A stretch of 37,973 nucleotides of DNA, taken from assembly GCA_023701125.1 (NCBI GenBank), contig JAMPXO010000038.1, forward strand, positions 1 to 37,973, written 5' to 3'. A program made the position numbers and the translations under genes. This stretch comes from Vicinamibacteria bacterium. Its GTDB lineage: Bacteria; Acidobacteriota; Vicinamibacteria; Fen-336. A model generated the notes under the pieces. The model was given only the letters and a program-made list of their open reading frames with translations. It had not been told where the DNA came from and ran no database searches. This document shows positions 6,727 to 30,326 of this stretch, piece after piece; position 1 is the first letter of the stretch, and every line of letters begins with the position of its first letter.

Positions 6727-9700
6727 TCAGCGCTTGCGCCGCAGCTCGCGGCGATGCACTCCGCGGCGGTCGCTGACGATCGGGCCGGCCAGCCGGTCGG
6801 GAGTCTCGAGCTCGAGCGTGACCTCGTAGGTCTCGCCGTCCAGGTCGCGCTCGCGGTAGGTCAGGACCTGGCCGTCGAACGAGACGTCCGAGTAGCGATC
6901 TCCGCTGCCCCCGCGGGCGAGGCGCACGCCGCCGCCCGCGTCGGCCGAGATGCGGACGGGATCGGGGTTCGGCTCGCCGTCCCAGTACTCGTGCCACTCG
7001 CCGACGAGCGCCTGCGCCGCCGCCGCGCCGTCCGAGGGCGGCACGGGCGCCGTGGCCGTCCCGCCGCGGAGCGTGGCCCACCAGGTCCAGCGCAGGCCGT
7101 TGACGTTCGAGCCGCTGCCCTCCATCCGCTGACCGCGGATCGTGCCCTTGTTCTCGGCGTACTGGCCGTTCATCTCCATGTAGACGGAGTCGCCGTCCTG
7201 GCGCCACGTGCCATTGCGGAAGCGACCGGTGCTGTAGTCGTACTCGAGCGTGCCGTCGGGGTGGAACGTGTACTCGTAGCGGCCGCCGGGAGTCTCCTCG
7301 CCCTCCCACGTGGTGCCGGCGAGTTGGACGAGGCCCGCGACGCTGTGGGCCACGGAAGCCGGGACCGGGGCCGCGGCCCAGCCGGGGTCGATGCGGTCGA
7401 GCGCCTCGCGCACGGCCTCGCGCACGGGCTGCTCCGGGTCGTCGCGGTACGCCATCAGCCCGGGCACCGCGTCTTTCGCCGCCGGCCCGAGCTCGCCGAT
7501 CGCGCGGGCGGCGATCGCGCGCCGCGTCGTGCCCGGTTCGCCCAGCGCTTTCAGGAAGATCGGCGCGTCGGCCGGGCCCGTCACGAACTCCTTGCCCATC
7601 CAGGCCACGGCGTCCTCCGCGGCGCGCCGGACCTGGTACTCCGGGTCGAGGCGCAGCCGCAGCAGCGCCTCGCGGTGCGGGGCCGCGCCGGCGCCCAGCG
7701 CGCCGAGGCCCCACGCGCCGTTGACGCGCCACGTGGAGTCGGACGACTCGAGGGCCGCGACGTAGACCGGCCGCGCGCGCTCCGGGTGGATCAGCCCCGC
7801 GCCGTGCAGCAGGCGGGTGGCCAGCGGGTCGCCGTTGGCATACGCCGCGAAGAGACCGCCGAAGAAGAACAGCACCAGCCCCGCGGCGACCGCGGCGGCA
7901 ATCGCCAGCCGACGCCGCCAGCGGCGGCGCACGACCTGGCGCGCGAGCGCCGGATCCACCTTCTCCAGGGCCTCGAACGCGAGGGCACGGACCTGTTCGT
8001 CGGCGTCCTTCGCCGCGGCCTCCGCGAGCGCGGGGCCGGCCGTGCGCAACGACGCGGCCAGCTCGGCGTGACCCGCGGCCTGACCGGCCATCGCGCCCAG
8101 CGCGCGGGCCGCGGCGCGACGCGGCGGCACGACCGGGTCGGCCAGCAGGTGGGCCAGGCCACGAACGGCGGCCGGGGTCGGCGTGCAGACCTCGGGCAAC
8201 GCGGTGGCCGCGGCCTCGCGCACCTCCGCGTCTGCGTCGCGCAAGGCGGCGCCGAGGGCGGGCCCCGCGGTGCGGGCCGCACGGCCGATCGCCTGCAGCG
8301 CGCTCACGCAGGCCAGGCGGGAGGCCGAGTCGGGACCCTGCAGGCCGCGGGCGAGGTCGGGCACGGCCTCGATCGCCGCGGGCAGCTTCGCCCAGCCGGC
8401 GTCGATCCGGGCCAGCGCCTGCTGCGCCGCCCGGGCCACCGCGCCCGTGCGGTCGGCGAGCAGCGCAGCGAGGACCGGGATCGCGGCCGGGTCGGCGAGT
8501 GCGCCGAGCGCCTCCGCGGCGGCGGAGCGGACCTCCTTGTGCGGGTCGTGCAGCGCCGTGGCGAGCGCGGCGCCGGCCGACGTGGCAGCGGGGCCCAACG
8601 CACCCAGCGCCTGCGCGGCCGCGCGGCGCGCCTTCGGTTGCTCGGCGCCCAGCGCGGCGATCAGGTCGGGCAGTGCCTCGCGGGCGCCCTCGCTGCGCGC
8701 CCAGTCGGCGTCGATCTGCACCAGCGCCGCCGGCGCGACCGCCGCCAACCCGGCCTCGGGGTCCGCCAGCAATCGCACGAGCGGGCCGATCGCGCGCGGG
8801 TCGCGGACCGCGCCCAGGGCGTTCAACGCCGCCTCGCGCACCGCCGGCTCGGGGTCGTGCAACACCATCAGCAACGACGGCACCGCGGCCTTGCCGAGGC
8901 CGACGGCGGCGGTGCAGGCCAGCGCCCGCACCCGGGCGTGTTGGTGGCGCAACGCGAACGTGATCTCGTCGGCGGCGGCGGCGCCCAGAGCCTTCAGCGC
9001 CTCGGCGGCGCCTTCGCGCACCGGCGCCTTCTCGTGATCGAGCGCCGCGGCCAGCGCGGCAGCGGCGGGCGCGCCCTGGCGGCCGAGCGCCGTGGCCGCG
9101 GCGCGACGCACGTCCTTGTCGCCGTCGGCGAGCGCGTGGATCAGCGCCGGGATCGCACGGCCCGAGGGGTCCTGGCCATGGCCGAGCGCCTCGGCGGCGC
9201 GCGTGCGGTCGTCGGCCGAGCCCTGGCTCAGCGCCTTCAACAACTCGGGCGTGCCTGCCAGGCCGAGCCGCATCCGCGTGTTGTGGACCGAGGGCAGGCT
9301 GGTGCCGATGTCCGAGCCCAGCTTCTTCAGCGCGTCGAGGTTCTCCTTGACCGCGGTGTCGTCGGGTGCCAGGTCCGCGGCGACGACGAGGTCCCCCGCC
9401 GCGTCCACCATCGCCTCGCGCATGCGGCCCTTGCGCGCGTCGCGCTCGCGGTCGTCGCGGCTGTTGCAGTCCGGGCACACGATGACCGGAATGTCCTTGA
9501 ACGTGAACTTGTAGAAGCGGCTGTAGATGCGCGAGCCGCAGGCCATGCAGTGGATCTCGATGTTGGCGTCGCCGGCCATGCCGATGCGGGCCGCCATCGC
9601 CGTCATCACGAACGTGTGGTCGCCGCGGCCGGCGCGCTCCGCGATGCGGGCGATGATCCAGGGCGGCTCCTGGGCGATCGCCATCGCCGGCTTCAGCTTC

Positions 9701-11238
9701 GCCATCGAGCGCTTGTTGAGGGCGCTGGCCAGGGCCTGGCCGACGACCTTGCGCTGCGGCTCTGGCAACTCGCCGCAGGCGCGGCCCATGTACACGCCGA
9801 CCAGCGGGCCGATCGACTCCTCCCACTCCTGGGTCTCGGCGCGGGCGCGCGCGCGCTCGGCGATCTCCAGCACCGGCGCCGGCAGGTCGTAGTAGCCCGC
9901 CGCGCACCAGTCGCCGCCGGTTTCCGTGTTCTTGCGGACGATGTCGAGGTTGTCCTGGACCCGCTGCTTCGTCGCCGCCGACGAGGCGGTCGCGAGCACC
10001 GGACCCAGCAGCTCGACGCAGCGGCGCCAGTCCTGGGTCTTGTTGCCGTAGGCGATCTGGCACGAGAGCGCCTTCAGTGCCACGTCGTCGTGGGCGGCCT
10101 CGCGCACCAGGTCGCCCGGCTCGAGCAGCGTGTCGAGCACGCGCAGCAGCGGCGTCGTCTGCTCCAGCAGGCGGCCGACCAGCGCGTCGGCGTGGACGGG
10201 GTCGCGGTCCGCCTCGGCCTCGGCAGTCGTGCACAGGGTCTTGATGCGCTGCCGCTGCGGCTCCAGCACGCGGTGGAGGGTGTCGACGACCAGCGCCGAG
10301 CGCTTCGGCGCCGCGGCGCCCTTGCGCTTGCGCGGCCCGCCTTTCGCCTTGACCGTCTTCTTGCACGCCGGGCACCACACCTGGCCCACCAGCTTGTCCA
10401 GGTCGACCGGTCCCTCGCACACCGCGCAGCGCGGCGCCTCGACGACGGCCGCGGGAGCCGGGGCCGGCGCCTCGTCGGCGGGCGGCGCATCCCACAGGTC
10501 GAGGTGGTGCACGTGGCGGGCGGCCGCGTCGAGGGCCGCGGACTCCGCCGCCTTCGCGGCCAGCTCGGCGCTGACCGAGAGCACCGCGCGCGGCAGCGAG
10601 GAGACGATGCCGTCGGCCTGCTCGGGGGTCAGCCGCGGGTCGGACAGCTCGGCCAGCCGTGCTCGCAACCGCTCGCGCAGGCCGGGGTCTTCGACCAGCC
10701 GGCGCCAGCGCCGGATCGCGTCTTCCCAACGCAGCTCGGTGCCATCGGTCGCGCCCTTCTCCTCGGCCTCGAGGGCCTGCAGGTGAGCGAGCACGGCGAG
10801 GTCGTGACGGGCGGCGAGCGCGGTGGCGCCGCCGGCCTGCTCCTGTTCCTGCCAGATCCGCTGCGCGGTCTCGAGGTCGCCCTTCGCCAGCGCCAGCAGG
10901 GCGGGGTCGGCGGCGCTGCGCTCGGCGGGCCAGAACCAGAACAGCTCGTCGACGATGCGGTCTTCGGGGTCGTGCAGCCGGCGCAGCGCCTCGCGGATCG
11001 CGTCGGAGTCGGGCGGCGGCTCGAGCGCCAGCGCGCCGCGGCCGTCGCCGCCCGGTGTCGCCAGCTTCTCCATCAGCTTCAGCCGATCGGCGCGGCGGGT
11101 GACGTCCCGGCCGCTGGCGTCGACCGGAAGGCCGGTGACGCGGAAGGCGTTGCGGCGGTAGAGATCGGGGTGGGCCGCCTCCATCAACGGCGCGAAGGCC
11201 ACGCCCCGTTCGCTGTCGGCACCGGCCGCTTCGCCCAT
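6727..11238 (-). CDS. J-like / zinc-ribbon / HEAT-repeat transmembrane protein with lipocalin-like C-terminus
   Basis: A 1503-aa protein and the last gene of the chaperone cluster. Residues about 29-52 (RNAFRVTGLPVDASGRDV) follow the J-domain pattern but lack HPD. Conserved WxWP-type sequence (ELFWFWP) follows near 98-104. Two zinc ribbons are present: C271/C274/C289/C292 and C564/C567/C588/C591. HEAT repeats fill about 650-1095, an RRRWRRR-flanked membrane helix spans about 1110-1133, and further HEAT repeats run to 1290. A lipocalin-like module at about 1303-1390 (GTTWEGEE, NGTWRQDGDSVYMEMN) is followed by a second beta domain. The positive-inside rule puts the N-terminus in the cytosol and the last 370 residues in the periplasm. 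The ATG at 11238 has GGAG 7 nt upstream. The same frame is open upstream, but that is shadow sequence of the Clp gene. The likely role is a membrane-anchored co-chaperone or scaffold (inference). Confidence 0.85.
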   Translation of the reverse strand: MGEAAGADSERGVAFAPLMEAAHPDLYRRNAFRVTGLPVDASGRDVTRRADRLKLMEKLATPGGDGRGALALEPPPDSDAIREALRRLHDPEDRIVDELFWFWPAERSAADPALLALAKGDLETAQRIWQEQEQAGGATALAARHDLAVLAHLQALEAEEKGATDGTELRWEDAIRRWRRLVEDPGLRERLRARLAELSDPRLTPEQADGIVSSLPRAVLSVSAELAAKAAESAALDAAARHVHHLDLWDAPPADEAPAPAPAAVVEAPRCAVCEGPVDLDKLVGQVWCPACKKTVKAKGGPRKRKGAAAPKRSALVVDTLHRVLEPQRQRIKTLCTTAEAEADRDPVHADALVGRLLEQTTPLLRVLDTLLEPGDLVREAAHDDVALKALSCQIAYGNKTQDWRRCVELLGPVLATASSAATKQRVQDNLDIVRKNTETGGDWCAAGYYDLPAPVLEIAERARARAETQEWEESIGPLVGVYMGRACGELPEPQRKVVGQALASALNKRSMAKLKPAMAIAQEPPWIIARIAERAGRGDHTFVMTAMAARIGMAGDANIEIHCMACGSRIYSRFYKFTFKDIPVIVCPDCNSRDDRERDARKGRMREAMVDAAGDLVVAADLAPDDTAVKENLDALKKLGSDIGTSLPSVHNTRMRLGLAGTPELLKALSQGSADDRTRAAEALGHGQDPSGRAIPALIHALADGDKDVRRAAATALGRQGAPAAAALAAALDHEKAPVREGAAEALKALGAAAADEITFALRHQHARVRALACTAAVGLGKAAVPSLLMVLHDPEPAVREAALNALGAVRDPRAIGPLVRLLADPEAGLAAVAPAALVQIDADWARSEGAREALPDLIAALGAEQPKARRAAAQALGALGPAATSAGAALATALHDPHKEVRSAAAEALGALADPAAIPVLAALLADRTGAVARAAQQALARIDAGWAKLPAAIEAVPDLARGLQGPDSASRLACVSALQAIGRAARTAGPALGAALRDADAEVREAAATALPEVCTPTPAAVRGLAHLLADPVVPPRRAAARALGAMAGQAAGHAELAASLRTAGPALAEAAAKDADEQVRALAFEALEKVDPALARQVVRRRWRRRLAIAAAVAAGLVLFFFGGLFAAYANGDPLATRLLHGAGLIHPERARPVYVAALESSDSTWRVNGAWGLGALGAGAAPHREALLRLRLDPEYQVRRAAEDAVAWMGKEFVTGPADAPIFLKALGEPGTTRRAIAARAIGELGPAAKDAVPGLMAYRDDPEQPVREAVREALDRIDPGWAAAPVPASVAHSVAGLVQLAGTTWEGEETPGGRYEYTFHPDGTLEYDYSTGRFRNGTWRQDGDSVYMEMNGQYAENKGTIRGQRMEGSGSNVNGLRWTWWATLRGGTATAPVPPSDGAAAAQALVGEWHEYWDGEPNPDPVRISADAGGGVRLARGGSGDRYSDVSFDGQVLTYRERDLDGETYEVTLELETPDRLAGPIVSDRRGVHRRELRRKR

Positions 11239-11264
11239 GGTGAGACTCCGTTTCCGGCCCGCGT

Positions 11265-14222
11265 TCAGGCCAGCTCGACGTCTTCGCCCGACAGTCGTGC
11301 CCGCACGACGACGCCGCGTTCGAGGCCGCGGGCCCGGGTGCGGACCGGGCCGCCGATCGCGCGCTCGAAGCGGCGCAGGAAGCCGCGCGCGCCTTCGGCT
11401 TGCGCCAGCCCCTCGGCCACGAGTCGCTCGCGCAGCGCGGGCTCGACCTCGAGCGCCCCGCCGCCGTGCGCGTCCAGCTCGGCCGCCAGCGCCGCGAGCT
11501 GGCGCTCGAGCAGTGCTTCGTAGTCGGCGGCCGCGAGCGGCGCGAACGCCACCACGCGGTCGATGCGGGCGAGGAACTCGGGCCGGAAGGCGCGCTCGAG
11601 GTGGCCGTCGGCGCCAGGCTCCGCCTCGCCGGCGGCCGAGCCCACGAAGCCGATCGTGCCCTCGCCCTGCGGCGCGTTGCAGGTCAGGACGAACAGGTGG
11701 CGGCGGAAGTCGACGCAGCGCCCGCGCGAGTCGGTGGCCTGGCCCTGGTCGAACACCTGCAGGAACCAGTCGGCGACGCCGGGCGCCGCCTTCTCCATCT
11801 CGTCGAGCAGGATCAGGCCCTGCGGGTGGCCCTCGGTGAAGCGGAACAGCGCGCCCGGCTCCTCGTGGCCGACGAAGCCCGGCGGCGCGCCGGACAGCCG
11901 CGCGAGGTCGTGGCGCTCGCCGTACTCGCTCATGTTGAAGCGGCCGAGGGCGCGACCCCCGGCGTCGAAGAGGGCGCGGGCGAGGGTTTCGGCGGCCAGC
12001 GTCTTGCCCACGCCCGTGGGCCCGCTGAACAGCAACACCGCCAGCGGCCGCGGCGAGGCCGGGTCGCGGGTGGCGGCGGCGGCCAGCGTCTCGCGGATCG
12101 CGGCGATGGCCGGTTCCTGGCCGACCAGCGCCCTGCGCAACGCGGCCGCCGCGCGGTCCGCGTCGAGCGCGCCCGCGGCGGTGACCGCGATCCCGTACTG
12201 CTCCTCGAGCACGGCCTCGATCTCGCGCGGCCCGACCCGCGGTGGCTGCTTCGCCGGCGCCGCCTCCTTCTCCGACAGTGACGACACGCAGGCGGCGGCG
12301 GCGGCGTTCTCCAGCAAGTCGATCGCCTTGTCGGGCAGCCGCCGCGCGGGCAGCAGCCGGGCCGAGAGGGTGACCGCGGCGGCGATCGCCTCGGGCGCCA
12401 ACTGCACGTGCTGGCGCTCCTCGATCCGCCGCGCCCACGTCTCGCACATCGCCAGCGCCTCGGCCTCGGACGGTTCGCCGAGCCGCAACAACTGGAACCG
12501 ACGCACGAAGGCGGCCTCGCCCTTGACGTGGCGCTCGAACTCCTCGGTCGTGGTCGCGCCGATGCAGCGGAAGTCGTCGCGGGCGAGCGCCGGCTTCAGG
12601 ATGTTGGCGACGTCGATCGCGCCCTCGCCGCCGCCTGCGCCCATCACCAGGTGGATCTCGTCGAGGAACAGCACGAGGTCGGGGTCCTCGCAGGCCTCGG
12701 ACAGCAGGCCCTTCAGCCGCTGCTCGAGGTCGCCGCGATAGCGGGTGCCGGCGACGAGGTCGGACACGCGCAGCTCCACGATCCGCAGCCGGCGCAGCAC
12801 CTCGCGGGCGTCGGGTGCCACCAGCCGCTGCGCGAAGCCCTCGACCAGCGCGGTCTTGCCGACGCCGGCGTCGCCGACCAGCAGCACGTTGCGCTTCGAC
12901 GTGCGTTGCAGGTAGCGGGCGAGGGTGCGCATCTCGGCCTGGCGGCCGATCACGGGCGAGAGCCGACCGGCGCGGGCCAGCTCCGTGAGGTCGCGGCCGA
13001 GCGGCGCGCCCAGCTCGCCCTTCAGCGCGGCCCGTCGGCGGGGCTCGGGCTCTCGTTCGACGGGGGCTGCGGAGCTCGCGTGAGGCGCGCCGGGCTCGTA
13101 CGGCGCGGCCTTGTCGGAGGCCGGCGGCTTGACGAAAGCCGCCTGGCCGATCTCGCCCACCTCGAACACCTCGACGGGCTCGTCGAGGCCCTTCACCTTG
13201 TAGAGGCCGTGCGAGCGCCACTCGATCGGCCCGAGGTCCGCGGGCGGCGTCGCAGCGAGACCCTCGCGGGCGGCGTCGTGCACGCCGCGGTCGGTCAGCA
13301 CCTGGTTGCCCGCGGCCAGCGACGAGATCCGCGATGCGGTGTCGATGGTGATGCCGAACAGCGGGTCGGAGAGCCCGCTGCCGCCGGCGGCCTTGCTCAG
13401 CACCGGGCCCGCGAACATCCCCATCCGCACCTTGAGCCCGACCTGCGCCAGGTCCTTGTGCGCGCGCAGCCGCGCCTGCACCGCGAGGCAGAAGCGCACC
13501 GCGTCCTCCTCCGCGGAGAACGCGAGCAGGAAGGCGTCGCCGATGGTCTTGATCTCGCGGCCGCCGGGATGCGCCTGCAACAGGTCGCGGAAGACGTTGT
13601 CGTGGGCGCGGAAGATGCGGGCGGCCTCGACGTCGCCGTAGCGGCGCTTGATCGCCATCGAGCCTTCCATGTCGGTCAGCACCAGCGTCACCCGTTCCAG
13701 AGCGAAGCGGGCGACGAACTCGTCGATCCGGGTCTCCCACTCCAGCGGGACCTTGGGCGACGCATGGCCGTCGAGGAACGGCGCGACGTCGGGCGGCGGC
13801 GCCTGCAGCATCGCCCGCAGCAGGTGGACGGGAGCGATCGCGAGGGCCGGGCCCTCGAGCGCGAACGGCGCGGCGGCCTCCAGCAGTTCTCGGGTCGACG
13901 CGGCGAGCGAGAGCCGGCGGATCGGGCGCTCCTCGTCGTCGGGTCGGGCGGCGCGGCGGACCTTGCGCCGCAGCCGGGTCAGCTCGGACGCGTCCATGCC
14001 GAGCACCGCGCGGGCCTCCGCGCCCTGCGCCCGCAGCTCGCGGGCGACGTCCGGCGCGACGCCGGCGCCTTCGAGGTCGGTGTCGAGCGCGTCGTCCGCC
14101 AGCTTGAGCAGCGTCAACAGCACGTGCAGCGGCGCGATCTCCTCGCGGCCGGCGAGGCAGGCCTCGCCGTTCGCGAGCGAGAGCAGCGTCTGCGCGGCCG
14201 CGCTGGTCGGGATCGCCTTCAC
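11265..14222 (-). CDS. Clp-type AAA+ unfoldase with embedded class III nucleotidyl cyclase domain
   Basis: A 985-aa protein. Residues 1-150 resemble the Clp_N double repeat. Residues about 178-355 form a class III cyclase domain: metal Asp184 (VLTDMEGSMA), Lys225/Asp229 (EIKTIGDAF), Asp286, and D294...R298 (TIDTASRI), where Asn is usual at 294. The first AAA+ module has Walker A GDAGVGKT (450-457), pore loop RYRGDLE and DEIH (521-524). The second has GPTGVGKT (734-741), pore loop GAPPGFVG and DEMEK (807-811). The long ClpB middle domain is absent. An IGF tripeptide (857-859) sits where ClpA/ClpC carry the ClpP-docking loop. GTG at 14222 overlaps the previous stop by four bases (GTGA); the open frame upstream is shadow. 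It probably unfolds or disaggregates proteins under cyclic-nucleotide or nucleotide-dependent control (inference). Confidence 0.92.
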   Translation of the reverse strand: MKAIPTSAAAQTLLSLANGEACLAGREEIAPLHVLLTLLKLADDALDTDLEGAGVAPDVARELRAQGAEARAVLGMDASELTRLRRKVRRAARPDDEERPIRRLSLAASTRELLEAAAPFALEGPALAIAPVHLLRAMLQAPPPDVAPFLDGHASPKVPLEWETRIDEFVARFALERVTLVLTDMEGSMAIKRRYGDVEAARIFRAHDNVFRDLLQAHPGGREIKTIGDAFLLAFSAEEDAVRFCLAVQARLRAHKDLAQVGLKVRMGMFAGPVLSKAAGGSGLSDPLFGITIDTASRISSLAAGNQVLTDRGVHDAAREGLAATPPADLGPIEWRSHGLYKVKGLDEPVEVFEVGEIGQAAFVKPPASDKAAPYEPGAPHASSAAPVEREPEPRRRAALKGELGAPLGRDLTELARAGRLSPVIGRQAEMRTLARYLQRTSKRNVLLVGDAGVGKTALVEGFAQRLVAPDAREVLRRLRIVELRVSDLVAGTRYRGDLEQRLKGLLSEACEDPDLVLFLDEIHLVMGAGGGEGAIDVANILKPALARDDFRCIGATTTEEFERHVKGEAAFVRRFQLLRLGEPSEAEALAMCETWARRIEERQHVQLAPEAIAAAVTLSARLLPARRLPDKAIDLLENAAAAACVSSLSEKEAAPAKQPPRVGPREIEAVLEEQYGIAVTAAGALDADRAAAALRRALVGQEPAIAAIRETLAAAATRDPASPRPLAVLLFSGPTGVGKTLAAETLARALFDAGGRALGRFNMSEYGERHDLARLSGAPPGFVGHEEPGALFRFTEGHPQGLILLDEMEKAAPGVADWFLQVFDQGQATDSRGRCVDFRRHLFVLTCNAPQGEGTIGFVGSAAGEAEPGADGHLERAFRPEFLARIDRVVAFAPLAAADYEALLERQLAALAAELDAHGGGALEVEPALRERLVAEGLAQAEGARGFLRRFERAIGGPVRTRARGLERGVVVRARLSGEDVELA

Positions 14223-15082
14223 GGCGCGCCCCGGGGCGCCAGGCGCAACTCCACGCTGCGGCGCGCACGGCGGGCGGAGGGATCGAGGCCGGGCGGCACT
14301 TCGGTCGCGGCCCGCAGCGTCACGGCCTCGGGCGGGAACGGCGCGTGCTCGCGCAGCGCATCGAGGGCCACCGCGGCGCGGGCCAGGCCCAGCGCCACGT
14401 TGTCTCGCCACGCGGCGCCAGGGCGCAGCGTGCGGTCGTCGGCGAGGCCGGTCACCGTCAGGGCGTGGGTGGCGGCGATCGGGGCGAGCTGGCGGCCGAG
14501 CTCAACCAGTGTCTCGCGCGCGCCGGGCCGCAGCTCGCTGCCCCGCGAGAAGAGGCCCTCGGGGAAGCGGATCACGCGGGCGCCGGCCTCGGTGGAGACG
14601 ACGGAACCAGCGACGTCGAGGGCGGGGAGCGCGGGTGCCGGGGCGAGAGCGAGGCCGGGCTCCGGGCCTCCCCCCACCGCCCGACCGGCCCGCTCCCCGG
14701 TGTCGGTGATGCGGGCCGGGAAGATCAGGAAGGCGGCGATCAGGATCGCCAGCACCGCGAGCACGTGCCCGCCGCCGTGCTTCGTGCGCAGCGCGGCAAT
14801 GCGTCGCAGGCCCGCGGCGGCAGGCGCGTGGTCCGGGGCCGTGCGCCGCAGCTCCGTCCACGACGCCTCGGCGTCGTCGAGGCGACCCTGCTGGGCGCGG
14901 ATGCGGGCCAGCAGGTCGAGCGCCTCCGGGCCGCCGTCCGCGGCACCGACTTCGCGCACGACAGACGCAGCCGCCTCGAGCCGCCCCTCGCGCGCCAGCT
15001 CCGCCGCGCGCGCCAGCCGCACGGCGGCCAGCGCCTGGCGGGCCTGGCTGGCCGCGTCCATCGGGCTCGCGACGTGGAGCAA
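14219..15082 (-). CDS. TPR-like / transmembrane / OmpA-like protein
   Basis: About 287 aa. The cytosolic N-terminal 95 residues look like TPR helices (ARAAELAREGRLEAAASVV, LDDAEASWTELRRTAPDHAPA). One membrane helix follows (VLAVLAILIAAFLIFPA, about 106-122), then a proline-rich linker. The C-terminal domain has OmpA-like order: IRFPEGLFSRGSELRPGA, LTVTGLADD, DNVALGLARAAVALDAL, and ARRARRSVELRL. An OmpA-like domain in this topology usually faces the periplasm and may touch peptidoglycan. The start is TTG at 15082 because TAGGAGGTG pairs well with 16S rRNA five bases upstream. The GTG at 15088 overlaps that site and is a poorer choice. The gene lies between the Hsp70 and Clp genes and overlaps the Clp start. 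Confidence 0.82.
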   Translation of the reverse strand: MLHVASPMDAASQARQALAAVRLARAAELAREGRLEAAASVVREVGAADGGPEALDLLARIRAQQGRLDDAEASWTELRRTAPDHAPAAAGLRRIAALRTKHGGGHVLAVLAILIAAFLIFPARITDTGERAGRAVGGGPEPGLALAPAPALPALDVAGSVVSTEAGARVIRFPEGLFSRGSELRPGARETLVELGRQLAPIAATHALTVTGLADDRTLRPGAAWRDNVALGLARAAVALDALREHAPFPPEAVTLRAATEVPPGLDPSARRARRSVELRLAPRGAP

Positions 15083-15087
15083 GGGCA

Positions 15088-15093
15088 CCTCCT
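15088..15093 (-). promoter_or_regulatory. Strong Shine-Dalgarno overlapping the Hsp70 stop codon
   Basis: AGGAGG on the minus strand shares bases with the Hsp70 stop TAG (15094-15092) and is spaced 5 nt from TTG at 15082. This decides the start and suggests translational coupling. Confidence 0.65.
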
Positions 15094-17590
15094 AGCGAAT
15101 CAACCCCGAGAGCACCTTGTCGCGGTCCTCGTCGCCCGCCGGCAGCAGACCGGCGAGCTGGCGGACCGCGGCCTTCAGCGCCTCGACGTCGTTGTTGTTG
15201 ATCGCGCGGCGGGCCTGGGCGATGTACTCGTCCGCGCGCGCGGGATCGGTCATCAGGTGCTTCTTGGTCTCCAGGAAGCCGAGGCGGCCGACCCAGAAGC
15301 CGGGCTGGCGCAGCACGATCACCGCGCCGAGCCGGTCCATCTCCTGGACGCGGCCGCGGAGCAGGTCGGGGTCGCGCTCCTTGACGGCGCGGCGCACGTC
15401 CTGCTCGAGCGCGGCGAACGCCTGCTTCTCCTCCGCGGTGGCCTTGAAGTCGGGGTCGTTGACGATCTTGCGCTCGACCTCCACTTCTTTCTCCGCGGAG
15501 GCGACCAGCGCAGGCCACTCCAGGGCGTCTTCGACCTCGTCGATCGCCGACTTCAGGTCGAGCAGCCGCTTCTCGCACTTGTCGGCCGCGTCGGGATCGC
15601 CCGCGCCCGCCGCCAGCGAACCTTCGACCTCGCTGACCGCGTGCTCGCGCTCGATCCGCGCCAGCGCCTCCCCCGCCCGCGGGTCGCCGGTCTGGCGGCC
15701 CTTGTCGCGCGCCTCCTCCAGCCGCTTCTTCTGCCGCTCCACGTCGTTGCGCAGCTCGTCGGGGTGGCGCGCCTGCTTGCGGTACTCGTCGTAGCTGATG
15801 ACCTTGCCGAACTCGTTGTCGAGGATCGGCAGGTAGGCGGTCGCCTTCAGCAGCCGCGAGGCGTCGATCTCGATCGTGACCTCGACCTCGCTGCCGGCGG
15901 GCACGTCGCGCTGGACCTGGTCCGAGGTGATCTCCAGGTTGCCGATCAACTGGTTGCGGTCCGCGCGCGGGTTCTGGCCCTCCATCACCGGGATCTTGAT
16001 CGAGTGGTGGGCGTTGCCGCGGCGCACGTCGATCGCGGTGCGCAGCACCTTCAGCCGCCGCGCGGGCAGCGGCGTGCCCTTGTCGAGCAGCCACTCCATC
16101 TCGTTGTTGGCGAGGGCGACGCCGACCGAGTGGATCAGCGGCGGGTCGGTGATCGACAACCCGACCGTGTAGACGAGCTGGTCGGGGCTGACCGGCAGCA
16201 GCCGGCCGGTCTGGTCGCAGAGCTCGATGCGGAAGGTGTTGGGTCGCCCCTTCTCCGCCCACAGGCTGGTCATGAAGCCGCCGTTCGCGGCGATCGCCGT
16301 GCGCCCGCTGCGCCACGGCGGCCGGGCCTCGGCGTTGACGAACTCGACCGTGTAGTCGGAGACGTCGGCGCCGTCGGGGCTGGTCACCCGGCCGCCGACC
16401 AGCGGCTCGGTGTCCGCGCCGACCGGCTTGTACTCGAGCTGGATCTGGCACTGGCCCGCGACCGGGGCCGCGACGGACGTCGACTCCAGGCGCTGGGTGC
16501 CGGAGAAGATCGCGGCGCCGCGGGCGACCACGGTCAGCGGGTCGATCGAGAACTCGAGCGGGATGCCGAGGCCCTCGGCCAGCCGCTGGCGCAGGTACGG
16601 GGTCAGCGTCGGGCCGCCGACGAGCAGCACCTTCTCGACGTCGCCCGCGCCCAGCCGGCGCTCGGACAGCACCTTGCGGCAGATGTTGATCGCACGCTCG
16701 ACGTAGGGCTCGATCAGAGGCTCGACGTCGCTGCGCCGCAGCTCGTACTCGAACAGCACGCTCTCGCCGCGGTCGTCCTGGCACAGGCCGTCGATCGCGA
16801 TCTCGACCGAGCCCTCGCGCGACAGCCGGATCTTGGCCAGCTCGGCGTTCTGCTTGAGCTTGGCGATCGCCCCCGCGTGCTTGAGGTTGGCCCGCGACAG
16901 GTCGCTCACGGGGTGCTGCTTGTGGACGGCGGGGATCAACAACTGCTCGACGATCGACCAGTCGATCAGCTTGCCGCCGAGGTGGTTGTCGCCGCCGTGG
17001 TTGACGACCTGGATCACGCCGTCGCGGACGTGGATCACGGCCGCGTCGAAGGTGCCGCCGCCGAAGTCGTAGACGAGCCAGAACACCTTGTCGCTCTCGC
17101 TCTGGAAGCCGTAGGCGAGGGCGGCCGCCACGGGCTCCTGCAGCAGCGGGCTGGCGACGAAGCCGGCTCGCTGCGCCGCCTGCTTGGTCGCCTCGCACTG
17201 CGGCAGCTCGAACGCCGCAGGCACCGTGATCACGGCCGCCTCGACGTTCTCGCCCGAGCGCTGGGCCACGTCGCGCTTGAGCTCCTTCAGCACCTCGGCG
17301 GACAGGTCCTCGGGCCGCAGCGCGTGGCCGCTGCGCTTGAACGTGTACTCGCGGCCGGTGCCCATCTGCAGCTTGAACTCGCTGAAGGCGTTCTCCGGGT
17401 CGATCACCAGCCGCTCGTAGGCGCGGCGGCCGACACGCAAGGCGCCGGTCTTGTCCTGGAACACCGCGGAAGGCGTGTACTCGAAGCCCTCGTTGTTCTT
17501 GAACACGTGGGGCTCGGTGCCCTCGAGCACCGCGATGCTGCTGTTGGTGGTGCCGAGGTCGATGCCGTAGTCGATCGTCGCCCGTGCCAT
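15092..17590 (-). CDS. Hsp70 (DnaK-like) chaperone with extra beta domain and long helical tail
   Basis: An 832-aa Hsp70 of a non-housekeeping class. The nucleotide-binding domain spans 1-365, with phosphate loops GIDLGTTNSS (9-18) and VYDFGGGTFD (173-182) and adenosine motif VLLVGGPTLTP (321-331). About 125 beta-rich residues (375-500) with no counterpart in DnaK separate it from the substrate-binding beta domain (505-590, IKIPVMEGQN, VTIEIDASRLLKATA). A 240-residue charged helical tail follows (RQKKRLEEARDKGRQ, RRAINNNDVEALKAAVRQLAG). No EEVD ends it. The ATG at 17590 has GGAG 8 nt upstream and lies 3 nt after the GrpE-like gene. Partners are expected to be that exchange factor, the J-like protein and the Clp protein. 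Confidence 0.95.
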   Translation of the reverse strand: MARATIDYGIDLGTTNSSIAVLEGTEPHVFKNNEGFEYTPSAVFQDKTGALRVGRRAYERLVIDPENAFSEFKLQMGTGREYTFKRSGHALRPEDLSAEVLKELKRDVAQRSGENVEAAVITVPAAFELPQCEATKQAAQRAGFVASPLLQEPVAAALAYGFQSESDKVFWLVYDFGGGTFDAAVIHVRDGVIQVVNHGGDNHLGGKLIDWSIVEQLLIPAVHKQHPVSDLSRANLKHAGAIAKLKQNAELAKIRLSREGSVEIAIDGLCQDDRGESVLFEYELRRSDVEPLIEPYVERAINICRKVLSERRLGAGDVEKVLLVGGPTLTPYLRQRLAEGLGIPLEFSIDPLTVVARGAAIFSGTQRLESTSVAAPVAGQCQIQLEYKPVGADTEPLVGGRVTSPDGADVSDYTVEFVNAEARPPWRSGRTAIAANGGFMTSLWAEKGRPNTFRIELCDQTGRLLPVSPDQLVYTVGLSITDPPLIHSVGVALANNEMEWLLDKGTPLPARRLKVLRTAIDVRRGNAHHSIKIPVMEGQNPRADRNQLIGNLEITSDQVQRDVPAGSEVEVTIEIDASRLLKATAYLPILDNEFGKVISYDEYRKQARHPDELRNDVERQKKRLEEARDKGRQTGDPRAGEALARIEREHAVSEVEGSLAAGAGDPDAADKCEKRLLDLKSAIDEVEDALEWPALVASAEKEVEVERKIVNDPDFKATAEEKQAFAALEQDVRRAVKERDPDLLRGRVQEMDRLGAVIVLRQPGFWVGRLGFLETKKHLMTDPARADEYIAQARRAINNNDVEALKAAVRQLAGLLPAGDEDRDKVLSGLIR

Positions 17591-17593
17591 GGT

Positions 17594-18157
17594 TCACGCT
17601 CCAGGAGGGCCCGCGGCGGCGGGCGTGCCCACGATCACCTCGCCCATCTGCAGCGGGGCGTCGCGGAAGTAGAGGGTCGGCTTGACGGTCTCGATCACGG
17701 TCTCGCGGGCGAGGCCGGGCGTCGGCTGGAAGGCGAGCACGCGCAGCGCGAGCCCCTCGTCGAACGGTGCGCCGGTGTGGTCGATCACCTGCAGCCCGGC
17801 CTGGGCCAGCACGTCCCACGTCGACTGCAGGTGGCGATACGGGCGCCGCATGTTCTCCAGCGGGCGGTCGCTGCCCGGTTCCAGCATCTTCTGGCGCAGC
17901 CGCCACAGGCCGGTCGCCGCCTCGGCCAGAAACGCGAAGCGCTCGGCCGGCGGCGCGGCGGGAAGGGCGGCGGCACTCGCGCTCCCCGCGCTGGCGGTCA
18001 CCGCAGCGGCGACCGCGGCAGACAGCGATTGCAGCAGCGGCGCCCAGTCGGGCGCCTCGATCCGGAACTCGGCCGGCTGCCGCCGCTGACGCAGTTCGGC
18101 CAGCCGCGCGGCCCACGTCCACGCTCGCTGTCCGTCCGTCCCGATCGCGAGGGCCAT
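17594..18157 (-). CDS. Divergent GrpE-like nucleotide exchange factor
   Basis: 187 aa. The C-terminal 75 residues follow the GrpE order: a helix ending LWRLRQKMLEPG, NMRRPYRHLQSTWDVLAQ, then the beta domain AGLQVIDHTGAPFDEG (120-135), ETVIETVKPTLYF and GEVIVGTPA. This matches the canonical Gv.vId..GepFDP...tVvev...Gy.......r.a.ViVg. The N-terminal half is Ala-rich and shorter than the long GrpE coiled coil, so the dimer stalk may be reduced or absent. It should release ADP from the Hsp70 encoded 3 nt downstream. The start ATG follows GAGGAG with only a 3-nt gap, so the exact start is slightly uncertain. The kinase gene ends 30 nt upstream. Confidence 0.78.
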   Translation of the reverse strand: MALAIGTDGQRAWTWAARLAELRQRRQPAEFRIEAPDWAPLLQSLSAAVAAAVTASAGSASAAALPAAPPAERFAFLAEAATGLWRLRQKMLEPGSDRPLENMRRPYRHLQSTWDVLAQAGLQVIDHTGAPFDEGLALRVLAFQPTPGLARETVIETVKPTLYFRDAPLQMGEVIVGTPAAAGPPGA

Positions 18158-18187
18158 GCCCTCCTCACGTCCGGCGCGCGGGCCGCG

Positions 18188-19297
18188 CTACATCGCCACG
18201 CCCCGCCGCCACAGCCGGACCTGGTTCGCGTAGCGCTCGCGCAGGTCCGGCCACTTGTTGAACGCCTCTTCCATCTGGTCGGCCGCGTCGGCGAAGCGGC
18301 CGCGCTCGCGGGCCAGGGAAACGGCCTGGCGCGCCATCGTCTCGGCCTGGCGCTGGTCGCCCGGCGTGTGCATGCCGAGCGCGCTCTTCGACTCGTCGAG
18401 GCCGCTGCCCTTGGCCCGCGCGCCCGGCGCGCCGGCGCCGGCGGGCTGCCAGCGCTCGAGGTCGGCGAGCAGCTCGCGCGCGGAGGGGTGGCGCTCCTCG
18501 GGTTTCAGCGACAGCGCGCGGAACAGGATCTGGTCGAGGCCCGCGTCGGCCTTGGCGTTGAGTCGCGAGGGCGGGATCAGCGGCCGCTCGAAGCGACCCG
18601 GGTCGGCGGCCGCCTCGGTGTCGCCCAGGCCCGCGTAGGGCAGGCGGTCGGTCAGCAGCAGGTACAGCGTGCAGCCGAGCGCCCACACGTCGCCCGCCGC
18701 GGAGTCGGTCTGGAAGTCGCGCAGCGCCTCGGGGGCCTTGAACGAGCGGGTGCCGCGCGCGGAAGCCAGCAGCGTCAGCGGGTTGACGCGCTTGGCGAGC
18801 CCGAAGTCGCTGATCCGCGCCTGCAGGCCGTTCTGGTCGTAGCCGACCAGGATGTTCTGCGGCTTGATGTCGCGGTGGATGATCGGCGGCACCTCGGCGT
18901 GGGCGAGAGCCAGCCCGCGGCAGACCTGGCGCAGGATCTCGACCGCGGTCTCGACCGGCACGAACTGGGCGCCGTGCGAGCGCCAGAACTGCTCGAGCGA
19001 ACCGCCGGCGACGTACTCCATCGTGAAGAAGCCGCAGGTGCCGCGCGAGGTCTCGGTCACGTTGGCGTCGAACACGCGGACGATGTTGGGGTGGCCGATG
19101 CGCGACAGCAGGATCGCCTCGCCCAGCATCTGCTCGGTCTCCTCCATGGTCATGCCGACCATCTTGAAGACCTTCATCGCCTGGCGGCCGAGGAAGCGGT
19201 GCTTGACGCGATAGACCTCGGCGAACGCGCCTTCGCCGAGCGGACGTTCGACCTCGTAGGTTCCGCGGATGAGCTGCCCCTCGCGAAGCAGGCTCAT
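18188..19297 (-). CDS. Cytosolic Ser/Thr protein kinase, first gene of the chaperone operon
   Basis: A 369-aa Hanks-type kinase with an intact core: glycine loop GEGAFAEV (21-28), Lys42 in AMKVFK, HRDIKPQN (141-148), DFG (164-166) and APE (188-190). After the kinase lobe come about 85 residues with a linker and TPR-like helices (MARQAVSLARERGRFADAADQMEEAF). No membrane segment is visible, unlike the two kinases at 30323-34422. The ATG at 19297 has GGGAG 6 nt upstream. The same frame is open for 148 more codons but holds no kinase sequence. It heads a 12.6 kb co-directional run, so it may phosphorylate the chaperones or their co-factors (inference). Confidence 0.93.
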   Translation of the reverse strand: MSLLREGQLIRGTYEVERPLGEGAFAEVYRVKHRFLGRQAMKVFKMVGMTMEETEQMLGEAILLSRIGHPNIVRVFDANVTETSRGTCGFFTMEYVAGGSLEQFWRSHGAQFVPVETAVEILRQVCRGLALAHAEVPPIIHRDIKPQNILVGYDQNGLQARISDFGLAKRVNPLTLLASARGTRSFKAPEALRDFQTDSAAGDVWALGCTLYLLLTDRLPYAGLGDTEAAADPGRFERPLIPPSRLNAKADAGLDQILFRALSLKPEERHPSARELLADLERWQPAGAGAPGARAKGSGLDESKSALGMHTPGDQRQAETMARQAVSLARERGRFADAADQMEEAFNKWPDLRERYANQVRLWRRGVAM

Positions 19298-29470: not shown

Positions 29471-29668
29471 TCAGCAGGCCGTGGCCAGCCCGGACTCGCG
29501 CCGGGCATTCGTGCGGGCGTCGATCTCGTGGGCGATGGTCAGCAGCATCGTCTCGCACGAGGGGCACAGCCACAGGCTGCCGTCGAGCCCCGGTTCCTCT
29601 TCGCTGAACACCTCGATCCGCTGGTAGCAGCGGGTGTTCTCCTCGCAGCGTTCGCATCGCGTGCACAT
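29471..29668 (-). CDS. Small Cys-rich, probably zinc-binding protein
   Basis: 65 aa with MCTRCERCEENTRC at the start (C2, C5, C8, C14) and CPSC at 35-38, enough for a zinc ribbon or short zinc knuckles. The remainder is a helix (TMLLTIAHEIDARTNARR). A GAGGGG lies about 9 nt before the ATG. It is divergent from the ECF sigma gene, about 100 bp away. I do not recognise the family; coding potential rests on the paired cysteines. Confidence 0.5.
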   Translation of the reverse strand: MCTRCERCEENTRCYQRIEVFSEEEPGLDGSLWLCPSCETMLLTIAHEIDARTNARRESGLATAC

Positions 29669-29750
29669 GTGGCCTGTCCCCTCTTCTGACCGGGATGCGT
29701 CGAACGCGGCCGGATCGGCTCACGGGTTGGACGAGGGGTGTGAGCCCGAG

Positions 29751-29756
29751 CACAAT
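29751..29756 (+). promoter_or_regulatory. Candidate -10 before the ECF sigma gene
   Basis: CACAAT ends 9 nt before the proposed TTG start at 29766. There is no Shine-Dalgarno. The match is weak and rests on similar geometry elsewhere. Confidence 0.25.
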
Positions 29757-29765
29757 CGGGGCATC

Positions 29766-30326
29766 TTGTCCGACGACGCACCGCTCACCGAGCTGTTGCA
29801 GGCCTGGTCGGCCGGCGACACCGCCGCCCGCGAGGCGCTGCTGCCGCGCGTCTACGGCGAGTTGCGGCGGCGCGCCAACGCCTACCTGCGGCGCGAGCGG
29901 CCGGGCCACACCCTGCAGCCGACGGCGCTGGTCCACGAGGTCTACCTGCGGCTCGCCGCGCAGCACGTCGACTGGCAGAGCCGCGGCCACTTCTTCGGCC
30001 TCGCCTCGCAGTCGATGCGCCGCATCCTGGTCGACCACGCCCGCCACGAGGGCCGGGCCAAGCGCGGCGGCGGGGCGCTGAAAGTGGAGCTGTCGGAGGA
30101 CGTGGCCGGCGCGGCGCCCGCGGGCGACGTCGACCTGGAGGCGCTCGACGCGGCCCTCGAGGAGCTGGCGCGGCTCGACCCGCGCCAGGGCCGGATCGTC
30201 GAGCTGCGCTACTTCGGCGGGCTGTCGATCGAGGAGACGGCCGCCGTGCTCGACCTCTCCCCCGCCACCGTCAAGCGCGACTGGACGCTGGCCCGCGCCT
30301 TTCTGCACCAGCGGCTGCGCGCATGA
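29766..30326 (+). CDS. ECF-type RNA polymerase sigma factor (TIGR02999-like)
   Basis: 186 aa. Region 2 reads LLQAWSAGDTAAREALLPRVYGELRRRA...HTLQPTALVHEVYLRL, then HFFGLASQSMRRILVDHAR. Region 4 is LDPRQGRIVELRYFGGLSIEETAAVLDLSPATVKRDWTLARAFL. This is the sigma group abundant in Acidobacteriota and Planctomycetota, usually linked to Ser/Thr kinases, not to a classic anti-sigma factor. The ATG at 29634 would add 44 unrelated residues overlapping the divergent gene. TTG at 29766 gives the usual N-terminus. The kinase gene overlaps the stop (ATGA), so phosphorylation may control the sigma factor (inference). Confidence 0.9.
   Translation: MSDDAPLTELLQAWSAGDTAAREALLPRVYGELRRRANAYLRRERPGHTLQPTALVHEVYLRLAAQHVDWQSRGHFFGLASQSMRRILVDHARHEGRAKRGGGALKVELSEDVAGAAPAGDVDLEALDAALEELARLDPRQGRIVELRYFGGLSIEETAAVLDLSPATVKRDWTLARAFLHQRLRA

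What the first reader, a model, noticed from the sequence alone, without database searches (positions are those of the whole stretch)
6727..19297. Six-gene kinase-GrpE-Hsp70-OmpA-Clp/cyclase-J/HEAT operon, a possible new signalling-coupled chaperone system
Six co-directional genes with gaps of 30, 3, 9, -4 and 26 nt encode every class of part needed for Hsp70-Clp disaggregation (exchange factor, Hsp70, J-like partner, AAA+ ring). They also encode a Ser/Thr kinase and a nucleotidyl cyclase domain. Each part diverges from its housekeeping relative, so this is probably a dedicated second system, not the cell's main dnaK/clpB set. The motifs are visible; the joint function is inference.
Basis: partly seen in the sequence, partly recalled or inferred. 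Interest (0 to 1): 0.95.

Follow-up and report, generated by a model that had tools for sequence, protein, structure and literature searches.

The report
Rewired envelope-anchored Hsp70–Clp chaperone operon
A soil-type Acidobacterium carries a rare six-gene cluster for a second, membrane-linked chaperone machine whose Hsp70 and J-type partner have both lost the parts that normally make them work together, and relatives of this pair often sit on plasmids or next to anti-phage genes, so it may be a new chaperone design and a defence lead.

Summary
The six genes are real, on the minus strand, with the stated gaps. Two genomes from other families of the same class carry the same parts (34-73% identity) as kinase–J–GrpE–Hsp70–OmpA–Clp, led by a sigma-like gene. 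A four-gene core occurs in Candidatus Accumulibacter, another phylum. Only 3 of 193 class genomes have it; congeners lack it.

'Hsp70–ClpB disaggregase' is not supported. The Clp lacks ClpB's middle domain and has a ClpP-docking-like IGF tripeptide. The cyclase and HEAT parts occur only in the window copy.

Unexpected: the Hsp70 belongs to a supported clade outside DnaK/HscA/HscC. Across 24 members, ATPase residues are kept, but R167, N170 and T173, the residues that answer a J-domain's HPD, are always lost, and a ~100-residue insert replaces the linker. The neighbouring J-like protein has no HPD wherever found. Both sides of the J–Hsp70 switch changed together.

Several wider-clade members lie beside BREX, Gabija, Zorya, restriction, Tn7 or integrase genes. 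Best reading: a kinase-controlled, envelope-anchored Hsp70/Clp unfoldase; a defence role is a lead, unproven.

The parts
18188..19297 (-). Ser/Thr (Hanks-type) protein kinase, 369 aa, no TM; K42, HRD, DFG and APE motifs intact; conserved C-terminal extension
   Evidence: PF00069 E 9.7e-45; motifs; 69-73% identity to syntenic copies in G056 and G020; no TM
17594..18157 (-). small GrpE-like protein, 187 aa (helices plus beta wing)
   Evidence: sub-threshold PF01025 17.1 bits vs 25.8; low-confidence model whose best matches are GrpE chains, Z 3.9-4.8; 54% identity to syntenic copies
15092..17590 (-). non-canonical Hsp70, 832 aa: intact ATPase residues, HPD-responding residues lost
   Evidence: PF00012 E 7.1e-83 but TIGR02350 296.7 bits vs cut-off 822.6; tree and residues
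17123..17152 (-). stretch equivalent to DnaK 'KRIINEPTAA' (R167, N170, T173), here 'SPLLQEPVAA'
16148..16492 (-). about 100 extra residues in place of the DVLLLD interdomain linker, clade-wide
14219..15088 (-). TPR - one TM helix (14708-14764) - OmpA/MotB-like peptidoglycan-binding domain (14234-14566)
   Evidence: profile search of solved structures: MotS 9ljk E 4.2e-9, OmpA 5m38 1.4e-8, MotB 3khn 2e-8; TM
11265..14222 (-). Clp-type double AAA+ ring protein with degenerate Clp N-domain, ClpA/C-like
   Evidence: TIGR02639 449 bits in one stretch, ClpB only in two stretches; alignment
13272..13700 (-). class III nucleotidyl cyclase domain inserted between Clp N-domain and first AAA ring; metal-binding Asp residues kept; window copy only
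   Evidence: PF00211 E 1.2e-12; Ma1120 4wp8 E 5.3e-16; absent in G056 and G020
11646..11654 (-). IGF tripeptide at the ClpP-docking loop position of the second AAA ring
6727..11238 (-). J-like / zinc-ribbon / HEAT / TM protein, 1503 aa
10909..11175 (-). HPD-less J-like domain
   Evidence: alignment; model, J-domain matches
10363..10428 (-). zinc-ribbon motif (CxxC...CxxC)
   Evidence: sequence
9466..9549 (-). second zinc-ribbon motif (CxxC...CxxC)
   Evidence: sequence
7924..9246 (-). HEAT repeats, window copy only
   Evidence: PF13646 E 1.5e-55; J-like relatives end without HEAT
7852..7908 (-). predicted TM helix followed by a C-terminal region of further HEAT-like and beta-rich sequence

Best explanation
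The operon encodes a dedicated, inner-membrane- and peptidoglycan-anchored Hsp70-Clp unfoldase under a Ser/Thr kinase, separate from the cell's DnaK/ClpB. SHOWN from sequence: the parts, their synteny, an Hsp70 with intact ATPase residues but without HPD-responding residues and without the usual linker, an HPD-less J-like partner, a ClpA/C-type ring without ClpB's M-domain, TM helices in the J-like and OmpA proteins, and an OmpA/MotB-like domain. INFERRED mechanism: (1) the J-like protein, tethered in the membrane, brings a client or signal to the Hsp70; (2) because both halves of the HPD-R167 switch are gone, coupling runs through another contact, probably the inserted linker domain; (3) the GrpE-like protein resets the Hsp70; (4) the client goes to the Clp ring, which unfolds it and may feed it to the housekeeping ClpP (present in the genome); (5) the TPR-OmpA protein fixes the complex at the wall; (6) the kinase switches it on, in relatives perhaps also through the sigma-like gene upstream. 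In the window copy a cyclase is built into the Clp ring protein, so ring state and cyclic-nucleotide output may be coupled. The role is an accessory, horizontally acquired one; anti-phage or other conflict function is the leading suggestion for the wider clade.
For: Synteny of all six parts in G056 and G020, other families of the class, four parts in Accumulibacter. Hsp70 clade 100/100. R167 0/24, N170 0/24 (all Q), T173 0/24 in the clade against 34, 33 and 33 of 35 control Hsp70s; linker region 112-150 residues (72 in one broken copy) against 13-17. HPD absent in every J-like domain found beside a clade Hsp70, 21 of 24 loci clearly. Published work: the HPD Asp acts on R167, and R151, R167, N170, T173 and the linker are listed as mediating J action (PMC7289447; PMC4022485). 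Clp without M-domain, IGF in all three copies; ClpP present. TM helices, OmpA fold. Patchy occurrence, 3/193. Defence or mobile neighbours of clade members, against 0/8 defence systems beside canonical plasmid Hsp70s (Fisher p 0.026 for 4/7 vs 0/8).
Against: No expression, interaction or activity data. The window's own flanks are ordinary genes (M20 peptidase, Gate protein, DUF2721), so the defence lead rests on relatives, mostly distant ones. The clade branch with Hsp70-J-membrane protein (G004, G113, G410, G426) is not in visible islands. G056's second AAA ring has a broken Walker B (LSSWNK), so threading may not need both rings. The neighbourhood comparison is small and was read from annotation after seeing the data. 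GrpE and J-like assignments rest on weak structural matches.
Confidence: 0.55

Rival explanations
1. One reading: a second Hsp70-ClpB-type disaggregase that rescues aggregated proteins, in the manner of DnaK-ClpB.
For: All functional classes (Hsp70, J-like, GrpE-like, double AAA+ ring) are present. Canonical dnaK-grpE-J-cbpM-clpB operons do exist as accessory plasmid islands in Rhodococcus and Nocardia.
Against: No ClpB M-domain in any of the three Clp copies, and an IGF tripeptide instead. HPD and its Hsp70 counterpart are lost. The accessory islands of that kind keep standard DnaK residues.
Confidence: 0.12
2. A client-specific envelope assembly or secretion chaperone: the machine folds, inserts or turns over one envelope client, with the OmpA protein as scaffold and the kinase as on-switch, and has nothing to do with phage or plasmid conflict.
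For: Two membrane-anchored parts, one with an OmpA/MotB-like domain. Peptidoglycan-binding proteins also recur beside plasmid relatives. Window flanks are ordinary. MxDnaK2 and its GrpE homologue in Myxococcus are a specialised pair in one operon (PMC11019930).
Against: No constant client gene was found beside the three close copies. Very patchy distribution and island neighbours of relatives fit an accessory conflict role better.
Confidence: 0.22
3. A member of the GTPase/GAP1-N2 conflict systems described by Kaur et al. 2020, one theme of which carries Hsp70, GrpE, DnaJ-FNIII and kinases.
For: Similar parts list (PMC7159879). G020 has nearby genes that look like a tubulin/FtsZ-like GTPase and a vWA protein by eye, without a Pfam match.
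Against: GAP1-N2 (PF20013) is absent from six genomes of the clade, including the window's. No DO-GTPase was seen.
Confidence: 0.05
4. A mainly regulatory complex: the Hsp70 acts as an ATP-dependent switch or scaffold for kinase and sigma-like signalling, not as a chaperone; loss of J coupling marks loss of the folding cycle.
For: J coupling residues and linker lost; sigma-like gene precedes the kinase in both close relatives; cyclase fused in the window copy.
Against: Substrate-binding beta region is retained and aligns; a Clp ring or another AAA ATPase is a recurrent neighbour of clade Hsp70s; GrpE-like gene kept.
Confidence: 0.06

Closest known systems
DnaK-DnaJ-GrpE with ClpB (canonical bacterial disaggregase)
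   Same: Same functional classes of parts; ATPase residues of the Hsp70 retained
   Different: No HPD in the J-like partner, no R167/N170/T173 or DVLLLD linker in the Hsp70, about 100-residue insert, no M-domain in the Clp, membrane and wall anchors, kinase
Accessory dnaK-grpE-dnaJ-cbpM-clpB operons on actinobacterial plasmids (Rhodococcus PD04, Nocardia farcinica HB204)
   Same: Accessory, clustered second Hsp70-Clp set
   Different: Those carry annotated ClpB and standard DnaK residues, no kinase, no OmpA
MxDnaK2 with its GrpE homologue, Myxococcus xanthus (PMC11019930)
   Same: Specialised second Hsp70 with its own GrpE-like partner in one operon
   Different: That work treats it as a DnaK paralogue; no Clp, kinase or OmpA reported in the passages read
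GAP1-N2 GTPase-centred conflict systems (Kaur et al. 2020, PMC7159879)
   Same: Hsp70, GrpE, J-like and kinase parts in gene clusters
   Different: GAP1-N2 absent here
ClpA/ClpC-ClpP proteases
   Same: Double AAA+ ring without M-domain, ClpP-docking-like tripeptide
   Different: Below the ClpA cut-off (449 vs 993 bits), degenerate N-domain, cyclase inserted in the window copy
Zorya ZorB / MotB stator proteins
   Same: TM helix plus OmpA/MotB-like wall-binding domain
   Different: Cytoplasmic TPR instead of a stator partner; no ZorA/MotA beside it; resemblance only

Membership tests
DnaK (TIGR02350 equivalog) | score above curated cut-off (822.55 bits) | tested here: not met
   296.7 bits
Canonical Hsp70 J-coupling | R167, N170, T173 and DVLLLD-type linker | tested here: not met
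   0/24 in the clade; 33-34 of 35 controls keep each residue
Hsp70 superfamily | ATPase residues D8, T11, N13, K70, E171, D194, T199, D201 | tested here: met
   invariant in the clade
J-domain proteins | HPD motif | tested here: not met
   absent in all J-like domains found
J-domain proteins | J fold | tested here: inconclusive
   top Foldseek and VIA-align matches are J-domains, Z up to 7.8, rmsd 3.1 over 72, below the level that excludes a common arrangement
GrpE (PF01025) | score above gathering cut-off | tested here: not met
   17.1 vs 25.8 bits
GrpE | GrpE fold | tested here: inconclusive
   model pLDDT 58; five best chains are GrpE, Z 3.9-4.8
ClpB disaggregase | M-domain of ClpB | tested here: not met
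   absent in three copies, present in own C127 and Accumulibacter ClpB
ClpP-partner unfoldases (ClpA/C) | [ILMV]G[FL] tripeptide in second ring | tested here: met
   IGF in window, G056, G020
ClpP-partner unfoldases (ClpA/C) | binds and feeds ClpP | not testable with these tools
   ClpP gene present in the three genomes
ClpA (TIGR02639 equivalog) | score above cut-off 993.15 | tested here: not met
   449.4 bits
Class III nucleotidyl cyclases | fold match and two metal-binding Asp | tested here: met
   Ma1120 E 5e-16, both Asp aligned
OmpA/MotB C-terminal domain | profile match to solved members | tested here: met
GAP1-N2 conflict systems | GAP1-N2 domain gene | tested here: not met
   absent in six genomes, control rings in C. 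glutamicum
Known anti-phage systems (PADLOC 2.0.0) | own model for Hsp70, GrpE-like or J-like part | tested here: not met
   no match for P0002-P0004; kinase and AAA matches are superfamily-level; P0006 only a generic HEAT model

The most novel reading that the evidence does not exclude
A clade of bacterial Hsp70s has replaced the otherwise near-universal HPD-R167 switch: an HPD-less J-like partner and a domain inserted at the linker carry the allosteric signal instead. Members are island-borne, wall-anchored unfoldase systems that protect cells against phage or plasmids, and the window copy adds a cyclic-nucleotide alarm built into the unfoldase ring.
Probability: 0.25. Interest if true: 0.9.

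Novelty: new variant of a known kind. Interest (0 to 1): 0.72.

Why it matters
HPD in the J-protein and its arginine in the Hsp70 are described as invariant and as the core of how J-proteins drive Hsp70 (PMC7289447). A clade in which both sides are lost while the ATPase stays intact is a natural experiment on how Hsp70 allostery can be rebuilt, directly testable with two purified proteins. If the island setting of relatives reflects function, it also points to a chaperone-based defence type that PADLOC 2.0.0 does not cover. No description of this clade was found in the open-access papers searched here; subscription papers and preprints were not covered.

Tried and rejected
Disaggregase reading: rejected on M-domain, HPD and R167 evidence. 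GAP1-N2 system: rejected. Phage origin: no relative of the Hsp70 C-terminal half in IMG/VR contigs or 50,697 phage records. A type VI secretion reading (ClpV, PpkA-like kinase, TssL-OmpA) came to mind but was not tested by searching for Tss genes; none was seen in the flanks examined. Cyclase as part of the ancestral system: rejected, only the window copy has it. Promoter and terminator scan gave nothing above chance. Solved-structure sequence search with the J-like profile found nothing; the GrpE-like profile found only chance-level hits. The six-gene set itself as island-borne: only G056 shows defence genes within about 12 kb, so this is claimed for the wider clade only. Literature searches for HPD-less J partners in bacteria or an Hsp70-GrpE defence system found no description. 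A background expectation for integrases within 10 kb gave P 0.006 for 3 of 8 genomes, weak because genomes were chosen after the clade was seen.
Full report
Observation. Pfam finds a protein kinase, Hsp70, two AAA+ rings with a class III cyclase domain, and HEAT repeats. GrpE is a sub-threshold match; the OmpA part is not found by Pfam but is clear in a profile search of solved structures (MotS, OmpA, MotB at E about 1e-9 to 1e-8). The N-terminus of the last protein is J-like.

Synteny. tblastn of the six proteins finds the same parts in two genomes of other families in the class, G056 and G020, at 34-73% identity for the best segments. Their order is kinase, J-like, GrpE-like, Hsp70, OmpA, Clp. 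The J-like proteins there are 500-odd residues and end in two TM helices; the Clp proteins have no cyclase. A sigma-like gene (55% identity between the two, Sigma70_r2 match) and a small gene (39%) precede the kinase in both, not in the window. So the window copy differs in that the J-like gene stands at the end and carries HEAT repeats, and the Clp carries a cyclase. Candidatus Accumulibacter has J-like, GrpE-like, Hsp70 and OmpA only; its Clp proteins are elsewhere and of ordinary kinds. In 193 genomes of the class, only 3 have a close Hsp70, in three families, and the two sampled congeners lack it. A scan of about 85,000 species with two peptide patterns found only the three relatives named; divergent copies would be missed by that scan.

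A second system. The genome has two canonical DnaKs, two GrpEs, a ClpB-type protein with M-domain and other Clp proteins. The window Hsp70 scores 296.7 bits against the DnaK cut-off of 822.6.

The Hsp70 clade. A maximum-likelihood tree of the ATPase domain puts the window Hsp70 with 16 others in a clade with 100/100 support, apart from DnaK, HscA and HscC; the window, G056, G020 and Accumulibacter form a 100/99 group within it. In 24 members (plasmid and further chromosomal members added) D8, T11, N13, K70, E171, D194, T199 and D201 of E. coli DnaK are invariant, while R167 (0/24), N170 (Q in 24/24), T173 (V, I or L in 24/24), Y145 and D148 are never kept and R151 once. In 35 control Hsp70s the counts are R167 34, N170 33, T173 33. 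Between DnaK positions 383 and 397 the clade has 112-150 residues (72 in one broken copy, G038), controls 13-17. The substrate-binding beta region downstream is recognisable.

The J-like partner. A domain with the pattern NxF...RxAxxxLxDPxxRLxxEL lies beside the Hsp70 in 17 of 17 loci of the first set and in 4 of the 6 plasmid loci clearly (a partial match in Vibrio, none found in Pseudomonas; the G1010 locus has too little flank); none has HPD. An AlphaFold2 model of the window domain (pLDDT 79) has J-domains as its top matches: VIA-align Z up to 7.8, rmsd 3.1 over 72 residues. No single match is decisive, but nearly all top rows are J-domains. In canonical systems the HPD aspartate acts on R167, and R151, R167, N170, T173 and the linker are listed as mediators of J action (PMC7289447; PMC4022485). 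Both sides of this switch are missing together in this clade. This is sequence evidence for co-divergence, not proof of a new mechanism.

The Clp. The ring protein aligns in one stretch to ClpA and in two to ClpB. Aligned with the genome's ClpB-type protein and Accumulibacter ClpA and ClpB, it lacks the M-domain and has IGF at the ClpP-docking loop in all three copies. ClpP is present in all three genomes. In G056 the second ring's Walker B is broken (LSSWNK). ClpB and Hsp104 do not partner with a protease, unlike ClpA (review PMC5540906, abstract). Two own-genome paralogues (C77, C175) were picked in a wrong frame by my script and were ignored.

The cyclase. It matches the Ma1120 cyclase (E 5e-16), and the metal-binding aspartates and the lysine before the second one align. 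It may be active; this is untested.

Membrane. TM helices are predicted in all OmpA proteins and all J-like proteins, none in the kinase, Hsp70, GrpE-like or Clp.

Neighbourhoods of the wider clade. G056: GajA, GajB and HmaC about 4-12 kb beyond the Clp gene. G367: BrxL and an integrase. G276 and G636: integrase within 10 kb. G810: TrbL and relaxase. Aminobacter plasmid: GajA/GajB-like pair and integrase. Haliscomenobacter plasmid: BrxL, PglZ and a McrBC-like gene. Polaromonas plasmid: ZorA and an OmpA gene, plus an AAA/helicase pair. Shewanella and Aeromonas: beside Tn7-like transposition genes. Sinorhizobium: restriction endonuclease and Fic/VbhA. Eight canonical plasmid Hsp70s had no annotated dedicated defence system within 9 kb; 4/7 against 0/8 gives Fisher p 0.026. 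The sample is small and classed by hand. A second AAA ATPase often follows the Hsp70 in these loci, matching IetA models at superfamily level, and peptidoglycan-binding proteins recur, so an Hsp70-AAA pairing with a wall link seems a repeated theme. The window's own flanks show no defence genes among those identified.

Mechanism and confidence. See Best explanation. Parts, synteny, residue losses, insert, membrane helices and M-domain absence are shown; coupling route, ClpP use, kinase targets, cyclase role and biological role are inferred. Kinase control of an ECF sigma factor is documented elsewhere (PknS-EcfK, PMC13147305, abstract) and is only an analogy here.

Novelty. No library model or open-access paper found here describes this Hsp70 clade as such. 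Each part is of a known superfamily, so it is filed as a new variant of a known kind.

Noticed in passing
window 29628-32062 (+): ECF sigma factor (PF07638, E 2e-58) directly followed by a second Ser/Thr kinase (PF00069, E 2e-41): a separate sigma-kinase pair in the same window.
   Followed up: no
L040 2521-9802 (-), genome G056: GajB, GajA and HmaC-like genes side by side, matching Gabija and Hma models very strongly.
   Followed up: partly
L041 1-6615 (-), genome G020: Upstream of the six-gene cluster: a 740-aa protein with a weak FtsA/MreB-like stretch, a 757-aa protein that looks tubulin/FtsZ-like by eye (no Pfam match) and a vWA-like (DVSGSM) protein; perhaps a separate conflict system.
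   Followed up: partly
L104 and L106, plasmids of Shewanella and Aeromonas: Tn7-like transposition genes (TnsA, TnsD, TnsE annotated) are followed by a small protein, clade Hsp70, ATPase, peptidoglycan-binding protein and J-like protein, as if these were its cargo.
   Followed up: partly
L045, L046 (genomes G097, G085): Another Hsp70 with an N-terminal extension next to a small J-like protein with HRP in place of HPD, yet with all canonical J-coupling residues kept.
   Followed up: no
own genome contig C252 (L004): An Hsp70-like protein in a 1022-aa frame that also lacks R167/N170/T173 (LLEEPVAA) but was not placed in the tree.
   Followed up: no
L039 16239-18464, genome G056: Second AAA ring of the Clp has a broken Walker B (LILLSSWNK), so only the first ring may hydrolyse ATP.
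   Followed up: no
L109, L115 (Rhodococcus, Nocardia plasmids): Same gene order dnaK-grpE-dnaJ-cbpM-clpB on plasmids: accessory canonical disaggregase islands.
   Followed up: no
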